DNA of 40,245 bases from Acidobacteriota bacterium (GTDB lineage: Bacteria > Acidobacteriota > Thermoanaerobaculia > Gp7-AA8 > JAHWKK01): contig JAHWKK010000002.1 of the NCBI GenBank assembly GCA_019347945.1, forward strand, positions 221,316 through 261,560, read 5' to 3'. Position 1 is the stretch's first letter. The number at the start of each line of letters is the position of its first letter. The notes below the pieces were generated by a model. It worked only from the letters and a program-made list of their open reading frames with translations. It did not search any database and had not been told where the DNA came from. Shown here one piece after another: positions 5,436-33,836 of the stretch. A program made the translations under genes and the position numbers.

Positions 5436-5464
5436 GGGCGGGTGCTTTGTGCCGTCCTTTTTTT
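5436..5464 (+). terminator. Intrinsic terminator upstream of the giant gene
   Basis: GGGC-G-GGTGC pairs with GTGCCGTCC around a TTT loop (nine pairs, three of them G-U, one bulge) and is followed by seven T. It lies 24 bases before the ATG at 5488, so it either ends transcripts of the RidA/TMTC-like operon or conditionally attenuates the giant gene. Confidence 0.6.
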
Positions 5465-5487
5465 ATTTTCTTGCGAGGCTCGACACA

Positions 5488-11400: not shown

Positions 11401-14400
11401 GGCTGGAACGGCTCGGCCGACCGGTTCGTGGTTTTCCTCGGTCCCGCCGGAGCGGGCTGCAATACCCGGCTCGGCGAGACCACCGACAACTCGATCAGCT
11501 ACAGCGGTCTCGATCCCAACACCGAGTACGACTGGCGCGTGGTCGCGATCTCCGACGGTTGCATCGAGGCCTCATCGAGCTGCGTACGGTTCACGACCGG
11601 CGGCGAGTGCGGTACCGAAGCCCCCGAGCTGATCTCGCCCGACGACAACTCCGCTCCGACCACCCCCGTGCTGTTCCAGTGGAGCTCGGTCGAAGGGGTC
11701 AGCGGATACGTGGTCTATGCGGGCGCCGAGGGCGAGCCGATGAACGAGGTCGCGCGCACGAGCCAGAATGAGACGAGCGCGAGCGTCGCGATCGGTCCTG
11801 GTCGCGTGCAGTGGCGCGTCGAAGCATTGTATGGAACCAACTGCCCGCCGGTCTCGTCGCGAACGGGAGCCTTCACGGCCGTTCTCGCAGGCGAGTGCCG
11901 CGAAGAGAAGCCGCAGAACATCAATCCGGCTCAGGGAGCGAGCAATCTGGCCTCACCGCTGACTTTCAGCTGGATCGGGGTCGACGGAGCCACCGGCTAT
12001 CGCGTCTGGGTTGCGATCGAGGACGAGTTCCCGGTCGTCGTTGCAACCACGTCCGGGGCGACCAGCGCAACGGCTGAGGTGCCGTCCGGACAGCTGTTCT
12101 GGTACGTCCAGGCGCTGTTCGACGGATGTCCTCCCACGATCTCGGATCCGACGAGCTTCAGTGTCGCCCCCGGATCGAATTGCCCGACCGACGCCGCACA
12201 ACTGATCGCACCGCAAAACGGCGAGACCGTTGCCGGTGAAGTGACGTTCGAATGGACCGAGGTTTCGGGAGCGGTTCGCTATGCCGTCTGGGCGAGTGTC
12301 GATGGTGATGCACCTGCAATCGTCGGCACCACGACCGACCCGACGCTCACCCGCCGGATGGACTTCGGCGAGATCGAGTGGTTCGTCCAGACCTTCTTCG
12401 GAGGCTGCCCGGCGATATTCTCCGAGCGCAATACCTTCGACTCGGTCGAGGACTTCGAGTGCCCGACCGGTGTTGCACAACCGCTGTTGCCGGCTGACGG
12501 GGCGAGCTTCTCGAATGCTCTGGTCGCCTTCTCATGGACGCCGGTCGACGGCGCGGACGGTTACCGCGTGCTCGGCCGCTTCGGCGGCATCGGCGAGTTC
12601 GAGGTCATCGGCTCATCGCTTGCCGGCACCGAGCTTCAGATCCCCATCGAGGGAAGCTTCCTCGAGTGGAAGGTCGAGACGGTGTTCATCGGCTGTCCGC
12701 CGACCGAGTCGATCACCCGCTCTCTGGAGATCAACCAGATTGCATGTTCGACAGAGGTCTCGGAGCTGCTGCTCCCGGCCGTGCAGTCGACCCTGCCGGA
12801 TGAACGCGTCCTGATGACCTGGACGCTTGTCGACGGTGCGGCGGCCTACGAAGTGTGGGTCGCTTCGATCGACGGTGTTCCGAGCAAGGTTGCCCTGACC
12901 GACGGGCTCACGACCGATGTCGAGGTCGACCTCGACGAGGGTGTCTACCAGTGGTGGGTCAATGCTGTTCTCGGCGGCGAGTGCGACAAGACGCGCTCCG
13001 AGAATGGATCCTTCTCGGTCGACTTCCCCAGCCCGGACGCGTGCGACTCCGAGTCGGAGCTCGTGCTGATCTCGCCGAGCGAAGGTGCGGCCGAGCTCGT
13101 CTCGCCCATCATCCTCGAGTGGACGGCCGTGCCGGACGCGACCAGCTACAGGATCTTCACGATCAATCCGGCCGGCGTGGCCACGCCGTTCGGCCCGGTC
13201 CGCGAGTCGAACCAGGCAGTCGTCCAGTTCGAGCCCGGAATCGTCCGCTGGTACGTCGTCGCAAACCGCGCCGCATGTTCGCCGCTGCGGAGTCCGATCC
13301 AGCACTTCCGCGTCGAATCGGGCGCTGAATGTGACGTTCCCGACCGGCCGAGTCTCAGAGTTCCACAGAAGGTCGCTTCCGACACCGAGTACCGGGTGGC
13401 CTGGGATCAGGTCCCTGGAGCGACGGTCTACGAGGTCCAGGAAGCCCCGGTCCCGGTCTTCGCCGGTGTTCCGGTACAGGTCGTCAACGGCACGACCGCG
13501 AGCTTCATCCACACGGTCGAGGCGGGGCGCAGAAGCTTCTTCTATCGTGTCCGGGCGATCGGCGACTGCAACGGCGAGCGCGGCAACTACTCCTCGGTGG
13601 CCCGCGTCTTCGTCGACGCATCCTCGGTCTCCGAGACTGACGCGCTGAGCCGTGGAGGTCTGACCACGATGGCCGAGGATGTTCCGGGGGGATTCGCCAC
13701 GGTCGAGCTCAACAAGGACTCGCTGTCGAGAAAAGACATCGAGCAGTTCACGGTGACTCTGACCGGAGATGGAACCTTCCAGGTCGTACCCGATCAGCCA
13801 TGGCTCACCGTCGAGCCGGAGATCGTCACACTGACGCCGGCCGGCGTTCAGGTGACCGTCTTCGCCGAGATGGGTGATCTGCCCCTGGGATCGAATCAGG
13901 CGAGCCTCGATCTGATACCGGTGGCCGGCAAGAACGGCGTCACGACCAACCAGACTGGCGGAACGGTCGGGGTCTCGGTGGCGATGGTGACACCGGTCTC
14001 GTCCCAGCCGAAGAACGAGCCGCTGCCGGAGTCTCTGATCATTCCGGCGGTCGCGCACACGAACGGCGCAAACGGCTCGACGTGGCTCTCCGATGTCCGG
14101 CTGAGCAACGTCGGATCGACCGCGCAGAAGTACCAGCTCAACTTCACGCCATCGTCGACCGACGGTACCCGCGAGGGACAGTCGACGACGATCGACGTCA
14201 AGCCGGGCAGCTCGGTTGCGCTCAACGATCTGCTGGCCAACTGGTTCGGTGCCGTCGAGGAGAACGCCTCGGGTCTTCTCGAGATCCGTCCTCTGAAAGC
14301 GACGACCTCCTCATCGATCGGCGGTCTCGCCGCGGTCGCCTCGGGCGGTCCGGCTTCGCTCGCGTCGTCGCGAACCTACAACTTCACCCCCGAGGGGACC

Positions 14401-15595: not shown

Positions 15596-16468
15596 TCACA
15601 TTCGGGCCGCAACCGTCCCGCTCAGGCCGCTGACGATTCCCCGGATACGGTCGATGACCGATCGGGCGTGGAGCCTCGCCGACGATCGAACGATCGCGCG
15701 GAAATCCTCCGAGAGAAGCGCTGGAATGTTGCCGACGCCATGATGGATTCGCGCGATGAAATATCGATTTCTCGTCCGAAGAAACACTGCTCTGCCTGCA
15801 AGTTTTACCTCTGAACCCGACCCGATGTGCACGGCCAGGGGCTCGTCGAGTAGCTCGGCCTTCCATCCCTCTCTTCGAAGACGCGCTGCCAGCTCGACGT
15901 CTTCGTAGTAGGTCTCGAGAAGACCGAGGAAGATCTCGCCGCCTTTGCGTACGCTCTCGAGCGCTCCTCGCCGGTAGAGGGCCGCAGTCGCCGAAACACC
16001 CCAGATCTCGCGGAACCGGCAGTCGAAAGATTCGAGCGGACTCCCGTGACCGGCCTGAACGATCCGGCCATCCCGCGGCGCGATACCCGCTCCGTCGATC
16101 ATCCCGTCGGGCTGAAGATTGAGCGACTGAACCGCGGCCAGATCATCTCGCTCCTCGAGCCTTCCCGCGAGATTTTCCAGCCATTGCGGTTCGAGTACGA
16201 CGTCGTTGTTGATCAGCGCGACGTACGGTTCGCTCGTCGCTCGGATCGCCTGGTCGGCTCCCCGCGCAAATCCGATGTTGCGATCATTCCGGATGATCTC
16301 GATCGGAAGGGATGCAGGCCTCAGCCGGCCGGCGACAGGATCGACGGAGCCGTTGTCGAAGATCACCACCCGCTTCGGAGCAAGCGTCTGTCGCTCGAGC
16401 GAATCCAGGCAACGCTCGAGCATCTCGCCCCCGTCGAGGTCGAGGATGACGATCGCCACCTCAGTCAC
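15596..16468 (-). CDS. Family 2 glycosyltransferase
   Basis: A 290-residue GT-A enzyme of the GT2/rhamnosyltransferase type, cytoplasmic or membrane-associated, which transfers a sugar from a nucleotide donor to a glycan or lipid acceptor. Visible motifs: AIVILDLDGGEMLERCLDSL at the N-terminus, FDNGSVD (D38), NIGFARGADQAI, the DxD-equivalent INNDV (N88-D89) and the acceptor-side YYEDVELAARLRREGW near residue 190. The start is GTG at 16468, overlapping the stop of the upstream membrane-protein gene by 8 bases, so it is the last gene of the dapF operon. The sugar and acceptor cannot be told from sequence. Confidence 0.9.
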   Translation of the reverse strand: MTEVAIVILDLDGGEMLERCLDSLERQTLAPKRVVIFDNGSVDPVAGRLRPASLPIEIIRNDRNIGFARGADQAIRATSEPYVALINNDVVLEPQWLENLAGRLEERDDLAAVQSLNLQPDGMIDGAGIAPRDGRIVQAGHGSPLESFDCRFREIWGVSATAALYRRGALESVRKGGEIFLGLLETYYEDVELAARLRREGWKAELLDEPLAVHIGSGSEVKLAGRAVFLRTRNRYFIARIHHGVGNIPALLSEDFRAIVRSSARLHARSVIDRIRGIVSGLSGTVAARM

Positions 16469-18419
16469 CGGCGATCCAGTCGGCCGTTACCTCGCCGCTC
16501 AGAACCTCGATCTCGACGGCCGATCCGGCGGAGCGAGCAACCGGAAGCTCGGCGCGCAGCCACCCGGACGGAGGCGTCGGCCGCAGCCGGAAGGGCGCCC
16601 CATTGACCCGGATCACGGCGCTCCCCTCGCTCTGATACCGGAGAATCGCTTCGTCGCCTCGAAGCCGGAAGCGCGCGCGATCGCCGGGACGCAGCTTCCA
16701 CCCTCCATCGAAGCGAAACCGGGCAACCGTCCACCGCGGAGGGTGGAGCTCCCCCCCTTCATGGATCACGTGCGCATCTTCCAGATGAACGATCGCTCCC
16801 GGTGAGGATCCCAGGGCTACACCACAAGCGAGCGCGATTGCCAGCCCCGAGATCACGACTCTCGGGTCGATCGAACCGCCACGACGCAACATCAGAGCGA
16901 AAGCCGCGAGAAACGCGATTGCAATGGCCGTCCAGACGATTGCCGCTGCATTCGGGCGAATGAGACTCGGGAGAATCCTCGAAAAGTCACTGCCCCACGT
17001 CATCGACAGCCACTCGCCGAGAACGCTCTCTCCATTGGCGATGTTAAAGAGCCTCCCCGGGAAGGCGATGCCGTGAACGACGAGCCCTGCGGACCCGATC
17101 GCAGCGATCAGGATGATCCATCGCGGAATCGCGACCCAAAGGCGAGCAATCCCCAGAGCGAGGAGCGGAGCGAAAATCACCACATATCTCAGCGGAGGAG
17201 ACCATCCCCCATGCCACTCCGCCCTTGGAACGAGGAGCACGAGATAGGGAACAAGGGCGAGTAATCCCAGCCGGACAACCGGCGGCGAAACGGCCGCGAA
17301 CACGCAAACCAGCCCGACAAACATGAACGGACTCTGGAAGAGAAAACCGGCTCGTGCATCCACAAGGAGACCGGTCGTGCCCCTGATATAGTTCAGCGGG
17401 CCACCCGGCACGATCTCCGACAGAGTGTGAATACCCAGTGCACTCCCCTGTGCAACCGTCATGACGAGCATCGGCACGGTGACGATCAGCACGAACCCTC
17501 CGATGAGCGCCCATCGAACGCGGCTCGCCAGCCCTCCGATCCTCTCGCGATCCCTCCAGAGCGTCAACAGGATGAGAGTGACCACGACCGGCAGAAATCT
17601 CAGCTTGAAAAGCGCGGTGAGGAGACTCCATCCGAACAGAGCGGCCCAGTGCCGCCTGCTCGCAGCCCTCAGACTCTGCACAAAACAGAACGCCGCCGGC
17701 ACCTCGGGCCAGATCCGAGTCGAGTAGAAGACGACCGGTGGTGCGAAGCTGAGAAAGATCCAGCAGCGCTGAAGCGTCACGGTCCCGATTCCGGTCTCGG
17801 CGCCAAGCCGAAACCACGCCCAGGCGAGAAGCCCAGCGAAAATCGCGATCGTTGCAGCGGCGCCGCCAACACCCGCAATCGATACACCCGGAAGGATGAA
17901 AAGCGGCAGAAGCGGACCGTGCCGGCTGTAGAGCTCGCCGCTCGGACCCACCGGATCACCGAGTTGCGGGCCCAGATCCGTCCGACCAATGGCCGAGACC
18001 TCCGGATTGGCATATTGATTCGCCAGGTCGAGGTCACCGTCATGAAGGATCGACTCGGCGATCAGCACGTAGTAGGACTCGTCACCGTCGGTCGATACCG
18101 CACCGAGCTGAGCAGGTATCAATGCCGCACAGAAAAGGCTCGTCACGGTCCCCGCTCTGACGGGAGTGAGCCAATCGTGACCATTCCAAACTGCCAGGCC
18201 GATCAGCACCACCCTGGAGACCACCCACGCGCCAGTCAGGAGCCTCCAGCTCGAAGGGAAGGATCCCAACGCCATCGCCACGGTGGCTGCAATCAGAAAG
18301 AGCGAAGTCATGACCGCGTCCGTCACGAACAGTCGCATTCGATTCTCACTCGGAGATTTCACCGAGACGATTCCCGCGACAAGGGCCGTGAGGACGATCG
18401 TTGCCAGTTCGGGAGTCAC
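16461..18419 (-). CDS. Polytopic membrane protein, GT-C-like, with C-terminal beta domain
   Basis: A 652-residue integral membrane protein with about 12 hydrophobic segments. A large first periplasmic loop carries STDGDESYYVLIAESILHDG (acidic residues D111, D113, E114) and SRHGPLLPLFILPG, both typical of GT-C lipid-linked sugar transferases of the PMT/ArnT kind. The last 110 or so residues are a soluble, beta-strand-rich module (WTVARFRFDGGWKLRPGDRA onward) that could be a carbohydrate-binding-like domain. The start is GTG at 18419, in a GTGA overlap with the stop of the upstream gene. Between another membrane protein and a GT2 enzyme, it probably builds or decorates an envelope glycan (inference). 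Confidence 0.75.
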   Translation of the reverse strand: MTPELATIVLTALVAGIVSVKSPSENRMRLFVTDAVMTSLFLIAATVAMALGSFPSSWRLLTGAWVVSRVVLIGLAVWNGHDWLTPVRAGTVTSLFCAALIPAQLGAVSTDGDESYYVLIAESILHDGDLDLANQYANPEVSAIGRTDLGPQLGDPVGPSGELYSRHGPLLPLFILPGVSIAGVGGAAATIAIFAGLLAWAWFRLGAETGIGTVTLQRCWIFLSFAPPVVFYSTRIWPEVPAAFCFVQSLRAASRRHWAALFGWSLLTALFKLRFLPVVVTLILLTLWRDRERIGGLASRVRWALIGGFVLIVTVPMLVMTVAQGSALGIHTLSEIVPGGPLNYIRGTTGLLVDARAGFLFQSPFMFVGLVCVFAAVSPPVVRLGLLALVPYLVLLVPRAEWHGGWSPPLRYVVIFAPLLALGIARLWVAIPRWIILIAAIGSAGLVVHGIAFPGRLFNIANGESVLGEWLSMTWGSDFSRILPSLIRPNAAAIVWTAIAIAFLAAFALMLRRGGSIDPRVVISGLAIALACGVALGSSPGAIVHLEDAHVIHEGGELHPPRWTVARFRFDGGWKLRPGDRARFRLRGDEAILRYQSEGSAVIRVNGAPFRLRPTPPSGWLRAELPVARSAGSAVEIEVLSGEVTADWIAGD

Positions 18420-20008
18420 TCGAATCTCACCCCTTCGATGATCAATCCTTCATCGGGATCGAGCTCGGAAGACGCCCCGATTGAAACGAGCTTCACCGCA
18501 CCCGCTCCTCTCAGAATCATTCTGCCCGTACCCCGCCGGAACGCGTCGATTCCCCAGCCGGTCACGGGCCCGGAGGCAATCCGGGGCGGGACATTGAGAG
18601 TCCGGTACCAGGCAGTGCTCCGGAACGCGCCCCAGTCGGCGACGTCACCGATCGCAACCTCATGGCGAACGACGCCGCCATCCTCTCCCACCACGTCGAT
18701 ACTCCCCAGCGCCGTCCCCGCCGGGCGATCGCTCGCATTCTCCGCCGAAAGTTCGACGATTACCCGGTCCGCGCCCGCTTCCCCGCTGATGAAGCTGAGG
18801 CGCTCGCCTGCGCGGAGCGTCGCGAACGAGCTCCCGCCCGCGTAATGCGAGGAACCGAGCAGAAAAAGACCGGCACCGAGGATCACCGGGATCGCCACCG
18901 CGGAGAGCCTGCCGAAGAGGGGAGCGTACAGAATGGCGGCCGTCGCCAGCGTGATTGCCGTCGAGGAGTTGAACGGGAACCCGGCCATCACGGCTCCGCT
19001 CCAGGGAAACAGCGAAACAGCGATCGCCGCCAGGACGACCAGCGGAAGAGACGTGCTCTCCTCGCCGTGATCTCGCACTGCCGCCGTGCCGCCCGCGGCC
19101 AGGGCTCCGCCTAGGATCACGCTTGCCAGCGCAACCGATGGGCGGCTGATCAGAGCGATCCCGACTCCGGCGGCAAGCGGAATCCATAACGTCAGCTTCC
19201 GCGTCCGAATGGTGCCGGCGACGAACGGGAGCAGCGTCCACCACCCCGAGGCGAGAGAAGCCAGAGGGCTGAGCAGTACGATCGGGGCTCCCGTGAACGC
19301 GGGTCGTCTCCCGGCCCCCGCTCTCACCCCGAGAACGAGGACGGCCGCGAGGAGCGCAGCCCACAATCCGATCACGATGCCTGCGGCGAGCGCGGCGATC
19401 TCGATCACGACTCGGCGGCGCCCGCTCTGACGGATCCCGAACATCAGCAGGGCCGCGAACAGCGGAATGAGGCTCGCCCGCAACGGAAAGGCCGGCGTGA
19501 CGGCGGCCAGCAGGAGGGCGAATGCGACTCCCTCTCGTGGGGCGAGGAGTCTTCCCCGGTCATGGGGCCAGGCCAGGACGAACCCAGCCGCCCCCGCCAA
19601 AACGACCAATCCAGAAACCACATCCGCAACACCCGCGGCGCCGAGCAGACGAAAGGGTGCCATTCCGGTAGCGACGAGCACAGCAGTCTCGACTCGATGA
19701 TCGCTCACAATGACCAGCCAGAGGATCATTGCGCTCCAGGCGCCGCCGACGATCAGCGCGCGCACCGTGTCGTCGCCCGCGATGATCCACGCACCGAGCG
19801 CCAGGAGCGAAAGAGCACCGGTGACCGGGAAGGAAAGCCGCCGCGAGCCAAAAACTCCCACCACCAGAATGAGGAGTGGCAGCAGCAGATCTACAGGAGT
19901 CGTCCCGGCGCGGCTCCGCACGACGACCAACGCTGCCGCGGCGATGACGCCCGCAGTCGCGAGATTGGCCGAAAGAATCGGGTGGCCTGTGGTCGCATCC
20001 GCGCTCAC
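18416..20008 (-). CDS. Polytopic membrane protein of unknown function with C-terminal beta domain
   Basis: A 530-residue protein with about 13 Ala/Leu/Val-rich membrane segments up to residue 400, followed by about 130 soluble residues rich in beta strands (RVIVELSAENASDRPAG, DWGAFRSTAWYRTLNVPPR). I do not recognise the family. The overall plan, many membrane helices then a beta module, mirrors the downstream 652-residue protein, so both may work on the same extracytoplasmic glycan, for example as a polymerase, flippase or transferase. The start is GTG at 20008, overlapping the stop codon of dapF by 4 bases (GTGA); the alternative is a downstream start within the first 20 codons. Function is not assigned. 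Confidence 0.7.
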   Translation of the reverse strand: MSADATTGHPILSANLATAGVIAAAALVVVRSRAGTTPVDLLLPLLILVVGVFGSRRLSFPVTGALSLLALGAWIIAGDDTVRALIVGGAWSAMILWLVIVSDHRVETAVLVATGMAPFRLLGAAGVADVVSGLVVLAGAAGFVLAWPHDRGRLLAPREGVAFALLLAAVTPAFPLRASLIPLFAALLMFGIRQSGRRRVVIEIAALAAGIVIGLWAALLAAVLVLGVRAGAGRRPAFTGAPIVLLSPLASLASGWWTLLPFVAGTIRTRKLTLWIPLAAGVGIALISRPSVALASVILGGALAAGGTAAVRDHGEESTSLPLVVLAAIAVSLFPWSGAVMAGFPFNSSTAITLATAAILYAPLFGRLSAVAIPVILGAGLFLLGSSHYAGGSSFATLRAGERLSFISGEAGADRVIVELSAENASDRPAGTALGSIDVVGEDGGVVRHEVAIGDVADWGAFRSTAWYRTLNVPPRIASGPVTGWGIDAFRRGTGRMILRGAGAVKLVSIGASSELDPDEGLIIEGVRFE

Positions 20009-20892
20009 GAGACTTCGGGGTCGCGTAGGCCGGGGTGCCGCACCCAGTGCGGATCGAATCCCGCAATCGTTTCTCTCGTCATCGTTCCTTCGTACACCAC
20101 CCGCGCGTCGCCGATGAGCGTCAGCTTCGAGATTCCGTCGCTTCCGATCTCGAACGCAGCCTCGTAATCGATGCCGCTGCGCGTCCGCACTGTCAGCGGC
20201 GAGCTCACACGGCCAGTCAACGCCGAGGCTGCAACACCGGCAAGCACACCCGACCCGCAGGAGAGTGTTTCCCCCTCGACTCCTCTTTCGAAAGTACGGA
20301 TGTCGATCCGGTCCCGTCCGTGGACCTGAACGAAGTTCGCGTTCGCGCCGTCCGGAGCGAGGTCGGGATGCTGGCGGATACTCCGTCCACGGCCCGCGAC
20401 GTCGACTTCCCAGATCCCGTCGACGAACTCGACGAAATGCGGAACGCCGAGGATCATCGTGACTCCGGTTGCGAATCCGTCATCGCCGAGGTCGAGTCGC
20501 CGGTCGAGCCGGGCGGCCTCCGGACCCGCGACTTCGAGTTTGACCCGGTCGTCGTCGAGAAGCGTGGCGCTGACCACTCCGCAATCTGCCTCGATCGTCA
20601 TTTTCCGACTGGCAAGACCTTCCAGCACGGCGAACCGTGCAGCGCACCGGGTCCCGTTCGCGCAGAAATCAGCTCTCGAGCCGTCGGAATTGAAATAGAT
20701 CATTCGAACATCGGCCGTTTCCGATTCGGTACTGAGGACGATCAAACCGTCTGCGCCGATCCCGAGTCCCCGAATGCATGCTCTAGCCGCGAGATCCCCG
20801 AGATCGCTGATCTTCTGCTTGCGGCCGTCCAGCATGATGAAGTCATTGCCTCCACCGGCCATCTTGACGAATTTCGAGCGCGTCAGATCCAT
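20005..20892 (-). CDS. dapF: Diaminopimelate epimerase
   Basis: A 295-residue cofactor-independent racemase that converts LL- to meso-diaminopimelate for lysine and peptidoglycan. Both catalytic cysteines are present: C77 in NSDGSRADFCANGTRC and C212 in FERGVEGETLSCGSG. The usual GNDF (KMAGGGNDFIMLDG), GVPHFVEF and NANFVQV segments are also there. The first cysteine motif reads CANGTR instead of the common CGNGxR. ATG 20892 is chosen because it gives the standard N-terminus (MDLTRSKFVKMAGGGNDF); the frame stays open for another 36 codons upstream without family similarity. It is the first gene of a four-gene operon whose other members are membrane and glycosyltransferase proteins. Confidence 0.92.
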   Translation of the reverse strand: MDLTRSKFVKMAGGGNDFIMLDGRKQKISDLGDLAARACIRGLGIGADGLIVLSTESETADVRMIYFNSDGSRADFCANGTRCAARFAVLEGLASRKMTIEADCGVVSATLLDDDRVKLEVAGPEAARLDRRLDLGDDGFATGVTMILGVPHFVEFVDGIWEVDVAGRGRSIRQHPDLAPDGANANFVQVHGRDRIDIRTFERGVEGETLSCGSGVLAGVAASALTGRVSSPLTVRTRSGIDYEAAFEIGSDGISKLTLIGDARVVYEGTMTRETIAGFDPHWVRHPGLRDPEVS

Positions 20893-21035
20893 GAGATCGA
20901 AGGTGAGCGCTGAAATAATCACCCCCGCGCTCGTGCTACAGCATAGCGTCTCGACACCTGCGCGGGCGCAACTTTTCGCCCGCCCGGGCGTCGAAGTCAT
21001 GGACGTCCCGAAAAGGGCCGCACGGTCTGAATCCT

Positions 21036-22712
21036 ATGAAACCAATACTCACACTGGCACTCCTCCTCTCTGCCGGCGCCGCTCAGGCGCAGCAAACACC
21101 CCCAGCCGACGACCAGACTCCCCTGATGGAGACGATCGACATCCGGGTCATCAACGTTGATGCCGTCGTGACCGACCGCAAGGGAAATCCCGTAACAGGC
21201 CTCACGAGGGACGATTTCGAGATTTACGAGAATGGCCAGCCCCAGAGGATCACCAACTTCTACGAGGTGAACCTCGAAGAGCGCGATGCAACCGTTGATG
21301 CTCAGGGCACATCGACGACGAGTGCTGAAGCACCCGCCAGCCTGCCGGAGAGAGAAACACGACGGAAGATCGTATTTTTCGTCGACAACCTCTCCCTTTC
21401 TCCATTCAACCGGAACCGCGTATTCGAGGCGATGCAGGACTTCGTGGATGAAGTCATGCGGCCCGGCGACGAGGGAATGGTGGCGGCATGGAACCGGAGC
21501 ATGAAAGTCCGGGTCCCGTTTACCCAGGACACCCAGCAGATCAAGCTCGAGCTCGAGGCGATGAAAGGCGAAAGCGGTCTCGGAGTTCACTACCAGAGTG
21601 AGAAGCGTCAGATCGAAAACCGAATCAGAGAAGCGATGTCGGTGCAGGACGCGATCGTCGAGGCTCGCAGCTGGGCGATGTCGGTCGAGCACGATCTGCG
21701 GACGACCGTCGGAGCGGTCAACAGCCTCCTCGAGACACTCGGAGGAGTCGACGGCAAGAAGATCATGGTCATGACCACGGAGGGCTTCTATATGTCACCC
21801 GGCCGGGAAGCGTTCGCGTTCATCGATGAGATGAAGCGTGAAAAGCCGGAGTGGGGCGCCTACGGTTCCTCCGGCATGTTCGAAGGGATGGGATTCAACG
21901 CCAGCCACGAGATCCGATCTCTCGCGACGACCGCGAACGCCAACGACGTGACCCTGTACACCGTTCACGCGGCCGGCCTCGTAGGGATGTCGTCATCCTC
22001 GGCCGAGAACATGCACGCGCGCTCGGTGACCGTCGATACGGTCGCTCTGACCAACAGCACCGAGTCCCTTCAGTTTCTCGCCGAGATGACCGGAGGCGTC
22101 GCGACAGTCGGAACCAACAACTTCAGACGCGGGTTCGACACCATCAAGAGCGACCTCAGCTCGTATTACTCGCTCGGCTACCGCTCGACCACGCAGCGGA
22201 TCGACCGCCAGCGCAATCTGGAAGTCCGAATGAAGGACCGCAACCTGCGCGTGCGTGCAAGAAGAACCTTCATCGAAAAATCGATCGAGACGGAGATGCG
22301 CGACAAGGTCCTCGCTAAAGTTTTCTATTCGAGCGACGAGAACGATCTCGGCATCGTGCTTCGAACGGGCAAGCCCAGCCGATCGAGCGCCGAGATCTAC
22401 ACCGTTCCGCTCGAAGTGATGATCCCGATCGACAAGCTTACGATGCTCCCGGCCGGCGATACCCACCGCGGCAGCTTCACACTCTGGCTGGTCGTCGCGG
22501 ACGATCGTGGCGACACCTCGGATGTCGTGACCCAGCAACACTCCGTCGTTCTCACCGATGAACAGCTCGAGAGCCTCAAAGGAAAGTACTACACGTATGC
22601 CGTCGACCTTCGAATGCGGAAAGGCCGTCACGTGATTTCTGCCGGTGTGCTCGACGGGCTCACCAAATCGACGGGGTTTCGCCAGCAGCCCGTATACGCA
22701 ACCAGCCGCTAG
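21036..22712 (+). CDS. Secreted VWFA-related domain protein (Acidobacteria-type)
   Basis: A 558-residue exported protein. A signal peptide covers residues 1-18 (MKPILTLALLLSAGAAQA). Residues about 35-78 form the characteristic opening module (VINVDAVVTDRKGNPVTGL, DDFEIYENGQPQRITNFYEV). From about residue 110 comes a von Willebrand A-like domain (RKIVFFVDNLSLSPFNRNRV) with a long helical insert around 180-235, then SYYSLGYRSTT and a beta-rich C-terminus. This matches the VWFA-related family (TIGR03436) that is strongly expanded in Acidobacteria; the MIDAS is atypical (DNLSLS). Molecular role unknown, probably protein-protein contacts outside the cytoplasm. The next gene, truA, begins about 15 bases after its stop. 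Confidence 0.88.
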   Translation: MKPILTLALLLSAGAAQAQQTPPADDQTPLMETIDIRVINVDAVVTDRKGNPVTGLTRDDFEIYENGQPQRITNFYEVNLEERDATVDAQGTSTTSAEAPASLPERETRRKIVFFVDNLSLSPFNRNRVFEAMQDFVDEVMRPGDEGMVAAWNRSMKVRVPFTQDTQQIKLELEAMKGESGLGVHYQSEKRQIENRIREAMSVQDAIVEARSWAMSVEHDLRTTVGAVNSLLETLGGVDGKKIMVMTTEGFYMSPGREAFAFIDEMKREKPEWGAYGSSGMFEGMGFNASHEIRSLATTANANDVTLYTVHAAGLVGMSSSSAENMHARSVTVDTVALTNSTESLQFLAEMTGGVATVGTNNFRRGFDTIKSDLSSYYSLGYRSTTQRIDRQRNLEVRMKDRNLRVRARRTFIEKSIETEMRDKVLAKVFYSSDENDLGIVLRTGKPSRSSAEIYTVPLEVMIPIDKLTMLPAGDTHRGSFTLWLVVADDRGDTSDVVTQQHSVVLTDEQLESLKGKYYTYAVDLRMRKGRHVISAGVLDGLTKSTGFRQQPVYATSR

Positions 22713-27245: not shown

Positions 27246-27731
27246 TCAACGATCCTCGAATCCGAACCGCTTCGCCAGATAATCGGCGTCGATTCGATCC
27301 ACTGGCCGTACAGTATCCTTCTTCATCTGCCACAGCGTATGGGGGCTCACGACCTGTATCGCAACATCATCGATTCGCTTCTCCTCGATCTCGAGCGTGT
27401 CGAACTCAAAAGCCTCGCCAAGCCTGGTGAGAATGTCGAAACCGAATCCCTCGGGTGGCCAGTATCGAACAGCCGGGTACGGGCCACAAAGTTCGTCAGC
27501 GGAAATTTCGTCGATGCTCGGATCATCGAATACCGCGCGCAACGCATTCTTCAGCCGCTCGATATTCTCCCTCTCGGGCCGGACAAAAAGATCGAGGTCG
27601 GCGGTCGCACGCGCGAGCCCATGCAGACCGAGAGCAATTCCGCCGAAAATCGCATAATCGACTCGATGCTCCTCGAGTGCCCGCAGCACGACCAGGAGTT
27701 GCTCTTCGTCCACCCTGACATCGTCACTCAT
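27246..27731 (-). CDS. Nucleotidyltransferase (AbiEii/MNT-like fold)
   Basis: A 161-residue member of the Pol-beta nucleotidyltransferase superfamily. The active-site layout is FGGIALGLHGLARATADLDLFV: the GG pair (residues 30-31), a conserved Arg and the DxD metal site (D45, D47). A third acidic residue is likely within GFDILTRLGEAFEFD. The C-terminal part (SPHTLWQMKKDTVRPVDRIDADYL) resembles the lysine-containing segment of AbiEii-type proteins. Such proteins transfer NMP to RNA, tRNA or proteins, often as half of a toxin-antitoxin or phage-defence pair. Its partner is the 71-residue gene 3 bases downstream. Target unknown. Confidence 0.85.
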   Translation of the reverse strand: MSDDVRVDEEQLLVVLRALEEHRVDYAIFGGIALGLHGLARATADLDLFVRPERENIERLKNALRAVFDDPSIDEISADELCGPYPAVRYWPPEGFGFDILTRLGEAFEFDTLEIEEKRIDDVAIQVVSPHTLWQMKKDTVRPVDRIDADYLAKRFGFEDR

Positions 27732-28479: not shown

Positions 28480-28886
28480 GAAGAGTGAAGAGTGAAGGGT
28501 GAAGAGTGAAGAGTGAAAAAAGGATTCAGGAGCCAGGATTCAGAAGCAGGATTCAGGAACCAGGATTCAGAAGCAGGATTCAGGAATTAGGATTCAGGAG
28601 CCAGGATTCAGGAGCCAGTGTTGAGAGTGAGGAGTGAAGCACTCGTCATTCTGAGCCCGGCGGAGCGCGGGCGAAGAATCTGGGCGGGGGCTCGTGATTC
28701 ACCGCTGCCGCCCATTCGCCACTTTCTTTCACGAGCCTGCCCCCAGGTCCTTCGTCGCTGCGCTCCTCAGGATGACGAGCGTTTGGATGTGGCGAGAGCA
28801 AACGACCCTCACTCTTCAACCTGAATCCTGGCTCCTGAATCCTTTTTTCCCTCTTCACTCTTCACTCTTCACCCTTCACTCTTCAA
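28480..28886. repeat. Nested inverted-repeat block filling the intergenic region
   Basis: No gene is seen in this 420-base gap. The left arm is five GAAGAGT heptamers (28480-28514) followed by the 28-base segment 28516-28543. That segment is repeated exactly, inverted, at 28821-28848, and is followed by inverted CACTCTT heptamers running to the stop codon of the next gene. Between the arms, 28520-28620 carries about six degenerate CAGGATTCAGGAGC units, and 28642-28779 is a complete fold-back element. The outer arms together span about 65 bases each and could form a long stem. Confidence 0.9.
28642..28779. repeat. Dispersed fold-back element, copy A (MITE-like)
   Basis: About 138 bp with terminal inverted repeats CTCGTCATTCTGAG / CTCAGGATGACGAG (13 of 14 match) and an inner inverted repeat GGGGGCTCGTGA / TCACGAGCCTGCCCC. 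A second copy lies at 39998-40125. Similar CATTCTGAGC...GAAGAATCT sequences are, from memory, widespread intergenic repeats in environmental bacterial genomes. No transposase is linked. Confidence 0.85.
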
Positions 28887-30091
28887 TGAAGGCCGATCGA
28901 CGAGCCCACCCAGGTAAAATCCTTGTTGTAGTCGACGCCCAGCATTTTGCCTCGCGAGAGGCGGACGAGATTCTCGGCGAGTACCATCCGCTCCGTTCCC
29001 CGCGGACGCAGATACATCATTCTCACCTCGGCCTTCACCGACCCGCCGTCGGCAGCCTCGAGCGCACCCGCATACTCGACCTTCCGCTGAATGCACCAGA
29101 GTCCCTTCTGGTCGTCGGGTACCACGTTCAGATCAGCGACCGTCGGCTCCACGTTGACGCCGACGCCCGCAAAGGAAAACAACGGCTTCAGCACCCATGC
29201 CGTGTCGAGGTCGTCCGGCGGCTCATCGAGATCGCTCAACAGGATCGACTCCGGCACCGACGGATGCTCGAGAAACGGAAGCGTGTACTTCGACCAGATC
29301 CAGTACCAGTCCGGATGTGCTACCCACTCAACGTCGAGCTCTTCGCGGAAGTCGAACGGGAGAGCAGCGTTGCGCCGTACGAGCTCGTCGGCGATGACGC
29401 GGTTGTAAATTCGAAGGATTCGGCGCGAACGACCATTTTCATCGCGGCGAAAGAGCTGTCGCCCTCGGAGCTCGAGCTGGAGAACGTCCGCCTCCGGCAC
29501 GCCGAGTAACCTGGTAGTCGACGAAAAGTCACAGTTCGTCTTCTGGGTAGACGGTTCAATATCAATAAGGCACACATCTTCAGGGTCATGAGGGCCGACG
29601 ATGGTCTGCCCCGCCAGATCGACAAACGACTCCCGGTCGAGTCCCGAGAACCAGCAGCTCCAGTCCCGATTGAGTCCCGGGATCGCCGCAATCGTCTCGA
29701 CCCAGGCATCCCGTTGAAAGACTTCGAACATGAAGAGCGATGGAAAGCCCTGCAGCTCGATCAGTTTGGGTTCGAGCGTTCCGTCCGCTCCTCTGACGAT
29801 TGCGAAGTCGATCGTCGCGAAACTCGGAAGATGATCCCGCCCCGGTGCTCGGTAGGCATCCGGTACCGCCTTCTCCGAACGGGCGATCATGGCCGGGTCG
29901 CGGGCTTCTGCAATGATCGCATCCGCTGCGTCGGTCATCTTCCTGACCAGTTCCGGTGGAAGAAAAACGGGGGTTTCGGCGAGTCTGAACCCCGGCTCGC
30001 GGCCGCAAAGCAAGGTCAGTCTCTCACGGTAGCTTCGATACAGCTCATCGGTGAAAGCCTCATTGAATCTCTGGCGGTAGCGGCGATCCAT
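28883..30091 (-). CDS. ATP-grasp-like protein of unknown specificity
   Basis: A 402-residue cytoplasmic protein, last gene of a four-gene ligase operon. The C-terminal third has ATP-grasp-like features: WVLKPLFSFAGVGV (nucleotide-binding Lys and Gly-rich loop, residues about 310), WCIQRKVEYAG and VKAEVRMMYL. An N-terminal segment, PKLIELQGFPSLFMFE (residues about 108-123), resembles the acidic metal-binding part, so the fold may be circularly permuted as in glutathionylspermidine-synthase-like enzymes. If so, it forms an amide bond from a carboxylate and an amine using ATP. It starts 8 bases after the amidotransferase-like gene. Family assignment is by motif only; the substrate is unknown. 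Confidence 0.65.
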   Translation of the reverse strand: MDRRYRQRFNEAFTDELYRSYRERLTLLCGREPGFRLAETPVFLPPELVRKMTDAADAIIAEARDPAMIARSEKAVPDAYRAPGRDHLPSFATIDFAIVRGADGTLEPKLIELQGFPSLFMFEVFQRDAWVETIAAIPGLNRDWSCWFSGLDRESFVDLAGQTIVGPHDPEDVCLIDIEPSTQKTNCDFSSTTRLLGVPEADVLQLELRGRQLFRRDENGRSRRILRIYNRVIADELVRRNAALPFDFREELDVEWVAHPDWYWIWSKYTLPFLEHPSVPESILLSDLDEPPDDLDTAWVLKPLFSFAGVGVNVEPTVADLNVVPDDQKGLWCIQRKVEYAGALEAADGGSVKAEVRMMYLRPRGTERMVLAENLVRLSRGKMLGVDYNKDFTWVGSSIGLH

Positions 30092-30099
30092 CCGGGCGA

Positions 30100-31101
30100 T
30101 CAGACTGCGATCGATTCTCCCAACCGCGCGTGAGCCAGTCGGCGCAAATGAAACTCGAGGACGCCGAGCAACGTGTACATCGACGTCCGTCTCACGCGCT
30201 CGTCGACATCGCGTTCGTTCCAGTATCGCCTGAGCGCCTCGCCGCGCTGTTCATACCATTCCGGGCTCACCTCACCGCTCCCGAGCTTTTCCTCGAGGAC
30301 TTCTTCCAGATGCGCCAGGTCGACGACTTCAGGGTGGTGGTTGGCGCCGAATACCCGAGGCATCGTTCCGCTGACGTCTCTCGCGAGCTCGAACATCGTG
30401 AGCGCTTCACCCTCGCTCCCCTCCGGAGTCGACTCGAAAGCGAGATAGCTCGATCCGGCAGGCAACGGGCGCCCGTTCGGGATCAGATCGAAGAGCCGGC
30501 TGTCGAGCGCTCGAAAAAGAGGAGACTCCTTCAGCTCGCGTGCGAACCGGCCGAACCACGGATGCGCGAGGGCCTCTTTCGTGAGCCGATTCCTGACGAT
30601 GCCGCTGCTGGGCGCCTTGGTCCCGGCTCGAAGAGCCGGATCAGCGAAACCGCCCCAGCGGCACATCAGGCCGAACGAATGGCAGTACGAGAGCAGCGCG
30701 ACCCGCTCGTCCGCCAGAATCCGGTCGTACAAAGCAAACAGCGCGTCTTCCCATTCGATCTTCTCTGCCACACCCTCGGAGTACTCGGAAACGCCGTCGT
30801 TATTTCGGGGATCGAGGTGGCCCGGTCCTCCGGTCCCGACGTAGAGACCGAACCGCTCGGGATCGAAAGGCGGAATCGAATGCAAACGCCGGATGTCGAA
30901 CGAGAGGACCCGGATTTCGAGGCTCGTCCCCTCGAGCGCGACCTCGGCACTCTCGTGCACGGCGTGCACGAGCGAGTCGTGCCCCAGATTGGGAAGCCCG
31001 AAATTCATGTCGAGAATCACGACGTCGAGCATTCGAGGATCCCACCGAGGGAGGTCTCGCTCGACTCGCTCGAAACTGAACATCTGACCTTTGCGTTTCA
31101 T
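30100..31101 (-). CDS. Class-I glutamine amidotransferase-like protein
   Basis: A 333-residue protein with the elements of a class-I glutaminase: an oxyanion-type GTGGPG loop (residues 89-94), a nucleophile-elbow cysteine in LLSYCHSFG (C140) and the His-x-Glu pair in ANHHPEVV (H256, E258). These residues would release ammonia from glutamine or cleave a gamma-glutamyl bond. It is longer than a bare GATase domain, with about 70 extra C-terminal residues that are mostly helical. The N-terminus (DVVILDMNFG, residues 26-35) is the first Rossmann strand. It lies between the GCS2 ligase (19 bases upstream) and the ATP-grasp-like gene (8 bases downstream). It may supply ammonia, or hydrolyse a gamma-glutamyl intermediate, for that pathway. 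Confidence 0.78.
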   Translation of the reverse strand: MKRKGQMFSFERVERDLPRWDPRMLDVVILDMNFGLPNLGHDSLVHAVHESAEVALEGTSLEIRVLSFDIRRLHSIPPFDPERFGLYVGTGGPGHLDPRNNDGVSEYSEGVAEKIEWEDALFALYDRILADERVALLSYCHSFGLMCRWGGFADPALRAGTKAPSSGIVRNRLTKEALAHPWFGRFARELKESPLFRALDSRLFDLIPNGRPLPAGSSYLAFESTPEGSEGEALTMFELARDVSGTMPRVFGANHHPEVVDLAHLEEVLEEKLGSGEVSPEWYEQRGEALRRYWNERDVDERVRRTSMYTLLGVLEFHLRRLAHARLGESIAV

Positions 31102-31120
31102 CGTCAGCTACCGAGCCTCA

Positions 31121-32230
31121 TCAGGCCGTGATCCCCCGTTCGGTCTCGGCCATGATGTAGTCCACCACGGCTTCGAGGCTCTGTGTCTCCTTCCACACCC
31201 GCAGCTGCCGGTCGGCGCCGGGCCCCATTTTCATGATCTCGTGTGCATACTGCACTTCTTCGAGGCAACCGAGCTCCCGCGCGGACTCGGCGATCAGCTC
31301 GAGCAGCTCTTCGATGAGGCTCCTCGTATCGACCTGAGTCATCAATCCAAAATCGACGAGCTTTCCATCGAGACCCGCCTTCGCCGCCCGATTCTTGTTC
31401 TCCATGATCAAAGCCCGCCGATACAGTCGCCAGCTCATGTTCCGCCTGTGCAATTTCCACAGAGTATGAGTCAGAGCCTGGAAGATCGCGGCGATGCAGA
31501 TCGTCTCCTCGACTCTCATCGGAACGTCGCATATCCGGTACTCGATGGTCGGAAAATATGGATGAATCCTGAGGTCCCACCAGATCTTTTTCCCGTCGTC
31601 CAGGCAATCGGAAGCGATCAGTATGTCGAGAAATTCTTTGTACTCACCCCACGAGCGGAACGGGTCGGGGATTCCTGTACGGGGGAAGCGCTCGAAAACT
31701 TTCGTCCGGTAGCTCTTCCATCCCGTTTCCCTGCCGCACCAGAAGGGTGAATTGACCGACAACGCGAGGATGTGGGGCAGAAAGTATCTCGCCTGGTTGA
31801 GCAGATGAATTCTCGTCTCGTCGTCTTCTACCGCGACGTGAACGTGAAGGCCGAAGATCAGATTCGCCCGGGCGATCATGCCGAGGTCAGAGATGATCTT
31901 GAGATATCGCGGAGCCTCGACGATCGGAATCTCCGACCAGTGGGTCGACGGATGGGTGCCCGCAGCCGCGATTCTCAACCCGTTCTCTCTGGTGAGCCGG
32001 ATGATCTCGCGACGAAGCCGGGTCACTTCCCTCCGCGCATCCTGAATGTTGTGACAGATCGGCGTACCGACTTCGATGACCGAGTCGTGCATCTCCCGCT
32101 TGATCTCGTCGCGAAGTCGAGTTTCGCCCTCGGTGAAAAGCTCCTGAATGTGGGACCGGAGTTTTCTCGTCTCCGGATCGACGACCTGAAGCTCCTCTTC
32201 GATGCCGAGCGTGAACGATGGCTCGACCAT
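31121..32230 (-). CDS. GCS2/YbdK-family carboxylate-amine ligase
   Basis: A 369-residue member of the glutamate-cysteine ligase type 2 family, glutamine-synthetase-fold enzymes that use ATP to join a carboxylate (often the gamma-carboxyl of glutamate) to an amine. Visible: FTLGIEEELQVVD at the N-terminus (metal-binding glutamates 11-13), SVIEVGTPICHNIQDARRE, FGLHVHVAVED, SVNSPFWCGRETGWKSYRT and IEYRICDVPMRVEE. ATG 32230 is chosen because of the GGGAG site 5 bases upstream and because the motif sits at the N-terminus; the frame extends a further 70 Lys/Arg-rich codons that overlap the preceding gene. ATG and the preceding stop share one base (TAATG), so translation is coupled. The amine substrate is unknown. 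Confidence 0.88.
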   Translation of the reverse strand: MVEPSFTLGIEEELQVVDPETRKLRSHIQELFTEGETRLRDEIKREMHDSVIEVGTPICHNIQDARREVTRLRREIIRLTRENGLRIAAAGTHPSTHWSEIPIVEAPRYLKIISDLGMIARANLIFGLHVHVAVEDDETRIHLLNQARYFLPHILALSVNSPFWCGRETGWKSYRTKVFERFPRTGIPDPFRSWGEYKEFLDILIASDCLDDGKKIWWDLRIHPYFPTIEYRICDVPMRVEETICIAAIFQALTHTLWKLHRRNMSWRLYRRALIMENKNRAAKAGLDGKLVDFGLMTQVDTRSLIEELLELIAESARELGCLEEVQYAHEIMKMGPGADRQLRVWKETQSLEAVVDYIMAETERGITA

Positions 32231-33276
32231 TACTCTCCCTTTCGATCGGGGTTCCGGGTGGTTTTCCGGGGGCTCGATTTTTTCCTCGCTGGCGACTTTT
32301 TCGCACCTCCTTTTTTTTTCGTTTCTCTTCTCTTCTGCTTCTTCGATCCGAGAGTTTCGGGCCACGACCCGGTCGGCTCGTAGCCCGGAGGATCGAGAGC
32401 ACGTTCGATACAGACGCTCGCAACGGTCTCGACGACCCACTCGAAATTCTGCTCACCGACAGAAAAGGGATCGGCGTCGGGTGCAGGATTCATGAAATCG
32501 ATCGCGTAGGGCACTCCATCCCGGACGGCCAGCTCGACCGTATTCATGTCGTACCCGAGCGCTCGGCACAGCTCCAGAGCATCGCGCTCGATCTTTTCGA
32601 CGAGACCTGGATGCTCCGACACGTAATCACGGATGTAGCGCTCGTGAAACTGTCTTCGCGGATCGTAAGCCATTACCTTCACGTGCTTGCGGCCGATCAC
32701 ATAGCATCGAAAGTAGTCGGTGAAATCGATCGCCTCCTGGGCCATCATGCAGAGATCTCTCGTCTGGTCATACGAGGAAAAAAACTCCGCCCGGTCGTGG
32801 CATTTGTAGACGTCCTTCCATCCTCCCCCGTAAGCGGGCTTGAGGAAGATCGGGAAGCCGAGAAAGTCGAAAACTCCATCCCAGTCGACGAACTCGAGGT
32901 TGCGGAATGAATTTCCCTTCGTATTCGGTGGATGTTGCTTGTGCGGAAGCAATACCGTTCGCGGTACGGCCACTCCGACCGACTTCGCAACCAGGTTGTC
33001 GAAGAATTTGTCGTCGGCCGACCACCAGAATGGGTTGTTGATGATCGTCGCTCCACTCGCGGCGGCGCACTTCAGGAATGTCCGATAAAAAGGGACATCG
33101 TGACTGATCCGGTCGACGATGACCGCGTACGGAGTCTCCGCTCGATCCTCGACGTGAGAAATTCTCACGGCCTCGGCGCGCACGCCGCTCTCATTCCTGT
33201 CGTTGATCCTGTTGATGAGAGCCCAGGGAAAATGGTCCTCCATCCCGAACAGCACTCCTACGACCTTCTCCTTCAT
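32230..33276 (-). CDS. ATP-grasp ligase (RimK/D-Ala-D-Ala-ligase-like)
   Basis: A 348-residue ATP-grasp enzyme and the first gene of the operon. An N-terminal domain (VVGVLFGMEDHFPWALINRI) is followed by the ATP-binding core: FLKPAYGGGWKDVYK (K146), MAQEAID (Q180-E181), FRCYVIGRKHVKVM, and the metal-binding VELAVRDGVPYAIDFMNPAP (E249, D260, N263). A Lys/Arg/Ser-rich, probably disordered tail follows residue 300. These enzymes form acyl-phosphate intermediates and ligate them to amines. ATG 33276 is preferred: AAAGGA lies 9 bases upstream; ATG 33303, nine codons earlier, lacks a binding site but directly follows a -10-like sequence. Substrate not determinable. Confidence 0.85.
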   Translation of the reverse strand: MKEKVVGVLFGMEDHFPWALINRINDRNESGVRAEAVRISHVEDRAETPYAVIVDRISHDVPFYRTFLKCAAASGATIINNPFWWSADDKFFDNLVAKSVGVAVPRTVLLPHKQHPPNTKGNSFRNLEFVDWDGVFDFLGFPIFLKPAYGGGWKDVYKCHDRAEFFSSYDQTRDLCMMAQEAIDFTDYFRCYVIGRKHVKVMAYDPRRQFHERYIRDYVSEHPGLVEKIERDALELCRALGYDMNTVELAVRDGVPYAIDFMNPAPDADPFSVGEQNFEWVVETVASVCIERALDPPGYEPTGSWPETLGSKKQKRRETKKKGGAKKSPARKKSSPRKTTRNPDRKGE

Positions 33277-33347: not shown

Positions 33348-33836
33348 ATGAGTCTGAAAAGCGAATTCCGGGAGTTTGCCGTACGAGGCAACGTCGTCGA
33401 CATGGCCGTCGGGATCATCATCGGTGGTGCATTCGCCACGATCGCAAGGTCGCTCGTCGAGGACATCATCATGCCGCCGGTCGGTCTCATTCTCGGTGGC
33501 GTTGATTTCAAGGACTTCTTCGCTGTGCTGAAGTCGGGCACGCCCCCCGGACCCTACGTCACGATTGCCGACGCGCAGGCGTCCGGGGCGGTCACCCTCA
33601 ACTGGGGCGTTTTCATCAACAACATCGTCAGCTTCCTCATCGTCGCCTTCGCTGTGTTCATCCTCGTCAAGGCGATCAACCGGATCCGCCGGGCAGAAGT
33701 CCCCGTACCGGAGGATCCGACGACGAAAGTCTGCGAATTCTGCCGGCTCGAAGTCCCCGTACAGGCCACCCGATGCCCCAACTGCACTTCCGAGCTGGGC
33801 TCGCCCGGGGGAGTCGCGCCGCCCCCGCGAGCCTAG
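33348..33836 (+). CDS. mscL: Large-conductance mechanosensitive channel with C-terminal zinc ribbon
   Basis: A 162-residue MscL. This inner-membrane homopentamer opens under membrane tension to release solutes during hypo-osmotic shock. The first helix, [20 protein letters not shown], carries the pore-lining glycines, and the second is [22 protein letters not shown]. Where typical MscL ends in a short charged cytoplasmic helix bundle, this protein adds a treble-clef or zinc-ribbon module with C129-x2-C132 and C143-x2-C146, then a Pro/Gly tail. That could give metal- or redox-dependent control of the channel mouth (inference). It is transcribed divergently from the ligase operon. Confidence 0.95.

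What the first reader, a model, noticed from the sequence alone, without database searches (positions are those of the whole stretch)
28883..33276. Four-gene amidoligase operon: candidate pathway for an unknown amide- or peptide-bonded metabolite
Seen: four consecutive minus-strand genes with a 1-base overlap and gaps of 19 and 8 bases. They encode an ATP-grasp ligase, a GCS2/YbdK carboxylate-amine ligase, a Cys-His-Glu glutaminase-like protein and a second ATP-grasp-like protein, with no peptidase, transporter or regulator. Known: both ATP-grasp and GCS2 enzymes form C-N bonds from carboxylates; class-I GATases release ammonia or cleave gamma-glutamyl bonds. Inference: two or three successive ligations plus an amidation or deprotection step would make a small gamma-glutamyl-type compound (thiol, polyamine conjugate or capped peptide). 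I recall related amidoligase neighbourhoods from comparative genomics but cannot match this exact set to a characterised product.
Basis: partly seen in the sequence, partly recalled or inferred. Interest (0 to 1): 0.75.

Follow-up and report, generated by a model that had tools for sequence, protein, structure and literature searches.

The report
Conserved four-gene peptide-ligase operon, product unknown
A tight group of four bacterial genes, three encoding enzymes that join building blocks by amide bonds and one encoding an enzyme that cuts such bonds, recurs across at least five well-supported bacterial phyla and very probably makes a small peptide-like molecule that nobody has described yet.

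Summary
The operon is real: four minus-strand genes, 28883-33276, with a 1-base overlap and gaps of 19 and 8 bases. B is a GCS2/PRK13515 carboxylate-amine ligase; A is a distant RimK/LysX-type ATP-grasp. C and D match no Pfam or NCBIfam family. D's confident AlphaFold2 model has the full-length fold of eukaryotic-type glutathione synthetase and E. coli YgiC/YjfC/GspS (Z 24-26). Its metal-site motifs are altered (E-x-N to E-x-Q; R-E-G to F-A-G), so its activity is inferred. C has an intact Cys-His-Glu triad and is closest to plant gamma-glutamyl peptidase 1. The order A-B-C-D, usually preceded by an esterase gene, recurs in five phyla or more. D occurs in 29/247 Acidobacteriota and 60/198 Bacteroidota genomes; 28/29 and 58/60 of these also carry A, even where D is unlinked. 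In the C slot the GAT-type hydrolase is exchanged for an M29 metallopeptidase, never both, with about 4-5 swaps on the D tree: C probably hydrolyses an amide and is not an ammonia supplier. Best reading: a glutathione-style stepwise ligase pathway with a hydrolytic step; product unknown. Nearly all carriers also have BshC (bacillithiol), which argues against a sole-thiol role. No description of this set was found in the papers searched.

The parts
32230..33276 (-). Gene A: RimK/LysX-like ATP-grasp ligase (ORF can be read from 33303; homologues support the start at 33276); Lys/Arg-rich C-terminal tail
   Evidence: TIGR00768 E 4.7e-8, below cut-off; 29-row alignment; distribution
31121..32230 (-). 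Gene B: GCS2 / YbdK-type carboxylate-amine ligase (PRK13515); 1-base overlap with A
   Evidence: PF04107 E 4.8e-59; NF010039 503.6 bits, cut-off 371; YbdK 1r8g E 1e-47
30100..31101 (-). Gene C: class-I GAT-fold Cys-His-Glu hydrolase, closest to gamma-glutamyl peptidase 1; slot taken by an M29 metallopeptidase in other lineages
   Evidence: (C140, H256, E258 invariant); slot exchange
28883..30091 (-). Gene D: family without a Pfam or NCBIfam match; eukaryotic glutathione synthetase / YgiC / GspS-type ATP-grasp fold with altered metal motifs
   Evidence: no family; pLDDT 93.9; Z 24-26

Best explanation
The operon makes a small, non-ribosomal, amide-bonded metabolite by stepwise ATP-dependent ligation, in the manner of glutathione or glutathionylspermidine synthesis. 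Proposed steps (inferred): B (GCS2) joins a carboxylate, most likely the gamma-carboxylate of glutamate, to an amine; A and D each activate a carboxylate as an acyl phosphate and extend the product, D playing the part that glutathione synthetase or GspS plays, adding an amine or amino acid to the C-terminal carboxylate of a short peptide; C cuts one amide bond, either removing a gamma-glutamyl (or other N-terminal) residue used as a handle or turning the product over. Shown here: gene order, families, folds, conserved residues, co-occurrence and hydrolase exchange. Not shown: any substrate, product or activity.
For: A+B(+C) and D are adjacent in about half of 109 D-containing loci, in at least Acidobacteriota, Bacteroidota, Ignavibacteriota, Verrucomicrobiota and Vulcanimicrobiota. 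D implies A genome-wide: 28/29 in Acidobacteriota (Fisher 1e-15) and 58/60 in Bacteroidota (7e-34), also where D is unlinked: A-GCS2-M29 lies apart from D in f17 genomes such as those of L144-L145, and D-carrying Sorangium and Minicystis have A elsewhere. D fold: YjfC Z 26.4, YgiC 26.0, human glutathione synthetase 24.0, GspS 24.0, over 340-375 residues; YgiC and YjfC are peptide-spermidine ligases and Cp1B (9cjn, Z 22.4) is an amide-forming ATP-grasp of E-64 synthesis (PMC12568646). C: GGP1 by profile (E 4e-4), Foldseek (E 2e-11) and VIA Z 18.8. The C slot holds GAT or M29, never both in these loci; both have conserved catalytic residues, with about 4-5 swaps on the D tree. In some genomes without D, a circularly permuted ATP-grasp (PF14403) lies next to A.
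Against: D departs from glutathione synthetase/GspS at two metal-site motifs (E-x-N to E-x-Q; R-E-G to F-A-G), so it may do other chemistry or be a weak enzyme. 41 of 109 D loci have none of A, B or C in reach. Est3-A occurs without B, C and D nearby in some genomes (L139-L141), so the whole set is not obligatory. Nothing here fixes glutamate as a substrate; PRK13515 ligases have no substrate assigned in the library used. Co-occurrence p-values ignore shared ancestry. No PDB hit to D by sequence was significant, and the direct D-GSP_synth profile match is weak (E 0.007).
Confidence: 0.55

Rival explanations
1. Peptide-polyamine conjugate: D joins spermidine or another amine to a short peptide made by B and A, and C is the amidase that reverses it, as in GspS/GspA or trypanothione metabolism.
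For: The best structural matches of D are YjfC/YgiC and GspS; YgiC/YjfC are described as peptide-spermidine ligases (cited in PMC12568646); a hydrolase is part of the fullest clusters.
Against: The same fold also makes glutathione, homoglutathione and E-64, so it does not fix the nucleophile; no polyamine genes recognised in the neighbourhoods; C resembles a gamma-glutamyl peptidase, not the GspA amidase.
Confidence: 0.18
2. Glutathione-like low-molecular-weight thiol: B makes gamma-Glu-Cys, D adds the third residue, C and the esterase (as an S-acyl thiol hydrolase) recycle conjugates.
For: GCS2 plus a glutathione-synthetase-fold enzyme mirrors glutathione synthesis; GGP1 acts on glutathione conjugates (own knowledge); 0/29 carriers have a glutathione synthetase above cut-off; the esterase is a PF00756 protein.
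Against: 28/29 D genomes and 63/66 genomes with a close A homologue have BshC, so bacillithiol is probably already there; cysteine-ligase models score far below cut-off; S-formylglutathione hydrolase model not matched by est3.
Confidence: 0.1
3. Osmolyte or storage dipeptide system analogous to the N-acetylglutaminylglutamine amide trio (ligase, amidotransferase, peptidase).
For: Ligases with an interchangeable peptidase fit turnover of a stored peptide; in the window the divergent neighbour of A is an MscL channel (33348-33836).
Against: MscL next to the operon was noticed only in the window; no acetyltransferase or asparagine-synthase-like protein was recognised in the operons; the analogy is from memory.
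Confidence: 0.1
4. Protein or peptide tagging (RimK-, Pup- or COG2307/2308-like): the ligases attach amino acids to a protein and C removes them.
For: A is distantly RimK-like; some tagging systems use permuted ATP-grasp plus GCS-like ligases (own knowledge), and a PF14403 protein takes D's place next to A in some clusters.
Against: No small carrier or tag ORF fits between the window genes; no proteasome or transglutaminase family was recognised nearby; D's solved relatives act on small peptides.
Confidence: 0.07
5. C is a true glutaminase that feeds ammonia to A, B or D for an amidation.
For: C has the class-I GAT fold and triad and also resembles GMP synthase and other glutaminase subunits.
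Against: C is replaced by an M29 metallopeptidase in the same slot, never together; the closest characterised solved relative by profile and Foldseek is a gamma-glutamyl peptidase.
Confidence: 0.06

Closest known systems
Glutathione biosynthesis (GCS2-type gamma-glutamylcysteine ligase + eukaryotic-type glutathione synthetase)
   Same: A GCS2 ligase next to a protein with the full-length glutathione synthetase fold; stepwise ATP-dependent ligation
   Different: Two further genes (A, C); D has altered metal motifs and no family match; B is PRK13515, not a cysteine-ligase equivalog; carriers already have BshC
Glutathionylspermidine synthetase/amidase and YgiC/YjfC (Pfam GSP_synth)
   Same: Closest solved folds to D; a ligase paired with an amide hydrolase
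   Different: D misses PF03738 and lacks the R-E-G glutamate and the E-x-N asparagine; C is GAT-fold or M29, not the GspA amidase
Gamma-glutamyl peptidase 1 (GGP1, class-I GAT fold), also PuuD and gamma-glutamyl hydrolase
   Same: Closest to C by profile and Foldseek; Cys-His-Glu triad
   Different: C is about 80 residues longer and 13-16% identical; substrate not known
GCS2-like ligase plus GAT-like thiol peptidase neighbourhoods (Iyer, Burroughs and Aravind, PMC2588565)
   Same: Same principle: GCS-type ligase beside a GAT-like thiol peptidase or an alternative gamma-glutamyl-cleaving enzyme, proposed for glutathione-like peptides
   Different: That is another GCS-like family (Clostridium CJD_1902 type), and the passage names no ATP-grasp partners
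E-64 pathway ligase Cp1B (PMC12568646)
   Same: Glutathione-synthetase-fold ATP-grasp making an amide in a small peptide-like product
   Different: Fungal; no GCS2 or GAT partner in the passages read; epoxysuccinate substrate

Membership tests
GCS2 / YbdK carboxylate-amine ligase (gene B) | Match to PF04107 and to a carboxylate-amine ligase model above cut-off | tested here: met
   E 4.8e-59; NF010039 503.6 bits vs 371
GCS2 / YbdK carboxylate-amine ligase (gene B) | Glutamate:cysteine ligase activity | not testable with these tools
   Needs an enzyme assay; cyanobacterial GshA (53.5 vs 249 bits) and EgtA (17.3 vs 371) models are missed
Eukaryotic glutathione synthetase / GspS / YgiC superfamily (gene D) | Full-length fold | tested here: met
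   Z 24-26, 340-375 residues, rmsd 3.4-3.8 A
Eukaryotic glutathione synthetase / GspS / YgiC superfamily (gene D) | E-x-N metal motif | tested here: not met
   E112-L-Q114 invariant in 28 rows aligns with E-Y-N of GSP_synth
Eukaryotic glutathione synthetase / GspS / YgiC superfamily (gene D) | K-P-x-x-x-R-E-G loop with metal-binding Glu | tested here: not met
   KPLFSFAG aligns with KPLLSREG; Lys and Pro kept, Glu replaced by Ala; ligand roles from memory
Pfam GSP_synth (gene D) | Match to PF03738 | tested here: not met
   No Pfam family at E up to 1
Class-I glutamine amidotransferase fold (gene C) | Fold and Cys-His-Glu triad | tested here: met
   (C140, H256, E258 invariant in 19 rows)
Class-I glutamine amidotransferase fold (gene C) | Glutamine-dependent ammonia delivery to a partner synthetase | tested here: inconclusive
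   Slot exchange with M29 argues against; no assay
RimK / LysX ATP-grasp (gene A) | RimK family model TIGR00768 above its cut-off | tested here: not met
   32.7 bits vs 143.4, E 4.7e-8: a distant relative only
Bacterial glutathione pathway in carriers | Glutathione synthetase TIGR01380 above cut-off in the genome | tested here: not met
   0 of 29 D genomes; G000 has one hit at 183 bits vs 299
Ergothioneine pathway (EgtA) | EgtA model TIGR03444 above cut-off for gene B | tested here: not met
   17.3 bits vs 370.8
Cyanophycin or mycosporine pathway | Match of any of the four proteins to a family of these pathways | tested here: inconclusive
   No such Pfam or NCBIfam hit, but only family models were tried
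Pup / COG2307-2308 tagging systems | Small carrier or tag gene and proteasome or transglutaminase partners | tested here: inconclusive
   No room for a carrier between the window genes; carriers elsewhere in the genome not searched

The most novel reading that the evidence does not exclude
The operon makes a so far undescribed small peptide-type metabolite, shared by roughly 30% of sampled Bacteroidota species, about a tenth of sampled Acidobacteriota species and lineages in at least three further phyla, through a glutathione-synthetase-fold enzyme family with its own metal-site chemistry and an exchangeable amide hydrolase.
Probability: 0.45. Interest if true: 0.8.

Novelty: new variant of a known kind. 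Interest (0 to 1): 0.62.

Why it matters
Two of the four protein families have no Pfam or NCBIfam model although one of them occurs in 60 of 198 sampled Bacteroidota genomes. A pathway kept in the same order across distant phyla suggests a metabolite with a general role, and some carriers are named isolates (Pedobacter, Mucilaginibacter, Edaphobacter), so gene deletion plus metabolomics could test it directly. The hydrolase exchange gives a concrete handle on the step to assay.

Tried and rejected
Single-sequence scan of genome contigs with D found nothing; the alignment query worked. Sequence search of D in the PDB gave no significant hit, alone or as a profile. Glutathione, EgtA and GshA identities for B were rejected on cut-offs. 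Sole low-molecular-weight thiol: disfavoured by BshC co-occurrence. Defence system: no PADLOC hit for the four proteins. Plasmid-borne: no match for a Pedobacter D in 72,556 plasmids. Literature: no paper found describing this set; the 2009 comparative-genomics paper on amidoligases by Iyer and colleagues (Mol. BioSyst.), the most likely place, is not held, so prior mention there cannot be excluded. L047 was counted as GAT although its GAT gene lies outside the tight cluster; without it the swaps on the tree may be 4 rather than 5. Gene calls in other genomes are from a simple longest-ORF, homology-weighted script, so starts, and thus gaps, are approximate.

Full report
Observation. The window (contig C2 of G000; an acidobacterial genome judging by its nearest named relatives) holds four minus-strand genes, A (32230-33276), B (31121-32230), C (30100-31101) and D (28883-30091).

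What the proteins are. B is a GCS2 ligase: PF04107 E 5e-59 and the carboxylate-amine ligase model PRK13515 well above cut-off, while cyanobacterial glutamate-cysteine ligase and EgtA models are far below theirs; YbdK is the nearest solved structure. A is a distant RimK-type ATP-grasp (TIGR00768 E 5e-8, a quarter of the cut-off score) with conserved K-P, GGGW, E257 and D..N positions. C and D match no Pfam or NCBIfam family.

D. An AlphaFold2 model from 28 homologues has mean pLDDT 93.9. It matches, over its full length, YjfC (Z 26.4), YgiC (26.0), human glutathione synthetase (24.0), E. coli GspS (24.0) and the E-64 ligase Cp1B (22.4). Other ATP-grasp proteins come much lower (Z about 8). A profile comparison with GSP_synth proteins fetched from the same phylum is weak (E 0.007) but collinear and pairs PKLIELQ with PKLLEYN and KPLFSFAG with KPLLSREG. 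Thus E112, S118, K302 and P303 are kept, while the Asn of E-x-N is Gln and the Glu of R-E-G is Ala. The roles of these residues as metal ligands in glutathione synthetase are from memory. E112, Q114, K302, E355, R357, R377 and N389 are invariant in 28 sequences, which argues for a working but changed active site.

C. The model (pLDDT 92) has the class-I GAT fold. Nineteen homologues keep C140, H256 and E258. The best characterised hits are gamma-glutamyl peptidase 1 by profile (one uncharacterised protein scores higher) and by Foldseek; by VIA-align, GGP1, TM1158 and others tie at Z 18-19, so the fold alone does not single out gamma-glutamyl cleavage.

Conservation of the set. The common order is esterase (PF00756) - A - B - C - D. 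It appears in Acidobacteriota, Bacteroidota (Pedobacter, Mucilaginibacter, Pararhodonellum), Ignavibacteriota, Verrucomicrobiota and Vulcanimicrobiota, with single MAGs labelled Planctomycetota, Gemmatimonadota and Chlorobiota showing parts of it. In the window the esterase is not adjacent, but the genome has one elsewhere.

Co-occurrence. In Acidobacteriota D is in 29 of 247 genomes, A in 75, both in 28. In Bacteroidota D is in 60 of 198, A in 72, both in 58. Where D stands alone, A is usually found elsewhere in the genome: f17 genomes keep A-GCS2-M29 apart from D (L144, L145), and Sorangium and Minicystis have A with GCS2 elsewhere. These tests do not correct for ancestry. A also occurs without D; in several such genomes a circularly permuted ATP-grasp (PF14403) lies next to A, and in three only esterase-A remains.

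The exchangeable hydrolase. Of 109 D loci (some duplicated between the two collections), 32 have the GAT-type C and 29 an M29-type protein on the same strand in the neighbourhood, and none has both. The M29 proteins match PF02073, AmpS and more weakly the dioxygenase NicX, and keep two Glu, two His and one Asp that fit M29 metal ligands (assignment from memory). On a D tree the two states need about 5 changes, at least 3 forced by well supported branches. Two unrelated hydrolase folds in one slot are most simply explained if both cut the same amide; ammonia supply by C is then unlikely. The NicX hit leaves a small chance that the M29 type does something else.

Mechanism. I infer a stepwise ligase pathway: B forms the first amide, A and D extend, C trims or turns over. 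A gamma-glutamyl handle is the best guess (B family, C relatives) but not shown. A sole-thiol role is unlikely since BshC is present in 28 of 29 D genomes and 63 of 66 genomes with a close A; 0 of 29 have a glutathione synthetase above cut-off. A polyamine conjugate remains open because D's best matches YgiC and YjfC are peptide-spermidine ligases (PMC12568646).

Known or new. PMC2588565 describes another GCS2-like family beside GAT-like thiol peptidases and proposes glutathione-like peptides; the principle is thus known. I found no description of this set, but the most relevant comparative paper was not readable. I file it as a new variant of a known kind: an uncharacterised, widely conserved amidoligase operon with a family of glutathione-synthetase fold that the model libraries lack.

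Noticed in passing
33348-33836 (+): MscL mechanosensitive channel with a C-terminal CxxC..CxxC zinc-ribbon-like extension, divergent from gene A.
   Followed up: no
5449-15489 (+): A 3346-aa protein with Big_9, cadherin-like and DUF11 repeats, probably a large surface or secreted protein.
   Followed up: no
15596-21692 (-): Overlapping minus-strand genes: GT2 glycosyltransferase, two large proteins without Pfam match (652 and 530 aa), a DAP-epimerase-family protein and a 231-aa protein without match.
   Followed up: no
27246-27731 (-): Lone AbiEii-like nucleotidyltransferase, weak PADLOC match, no antitoxin partner looked for.
   Followed up: no
32230-32330 (-): Gene A of the window ends in a Lys/Arg/Ser-rich tail (KKKGGAKKSPARKKSSPRKTTRN); some Bacteroidota homologues have similar Lys/Ala-rich tails.
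   Followed up: no
L139-L141: Esterase-A pair stands without GCS2, C or D nearby in three f17 genomes, next to genes otherwise found beside D.
   Followed up: partly
L150, L152, L155, L156: A next to a circularly permuted ATP-grasp (PF14403) in genomes without D, suggesting that D's step can be done by another permuted ATP-grasp.
   Followed up: partly
L086-L135, Pedobacter loci: Downstream of D: Crp-type regulator, YceI and pirin-like genes in a conserved order.
   Followed up: no
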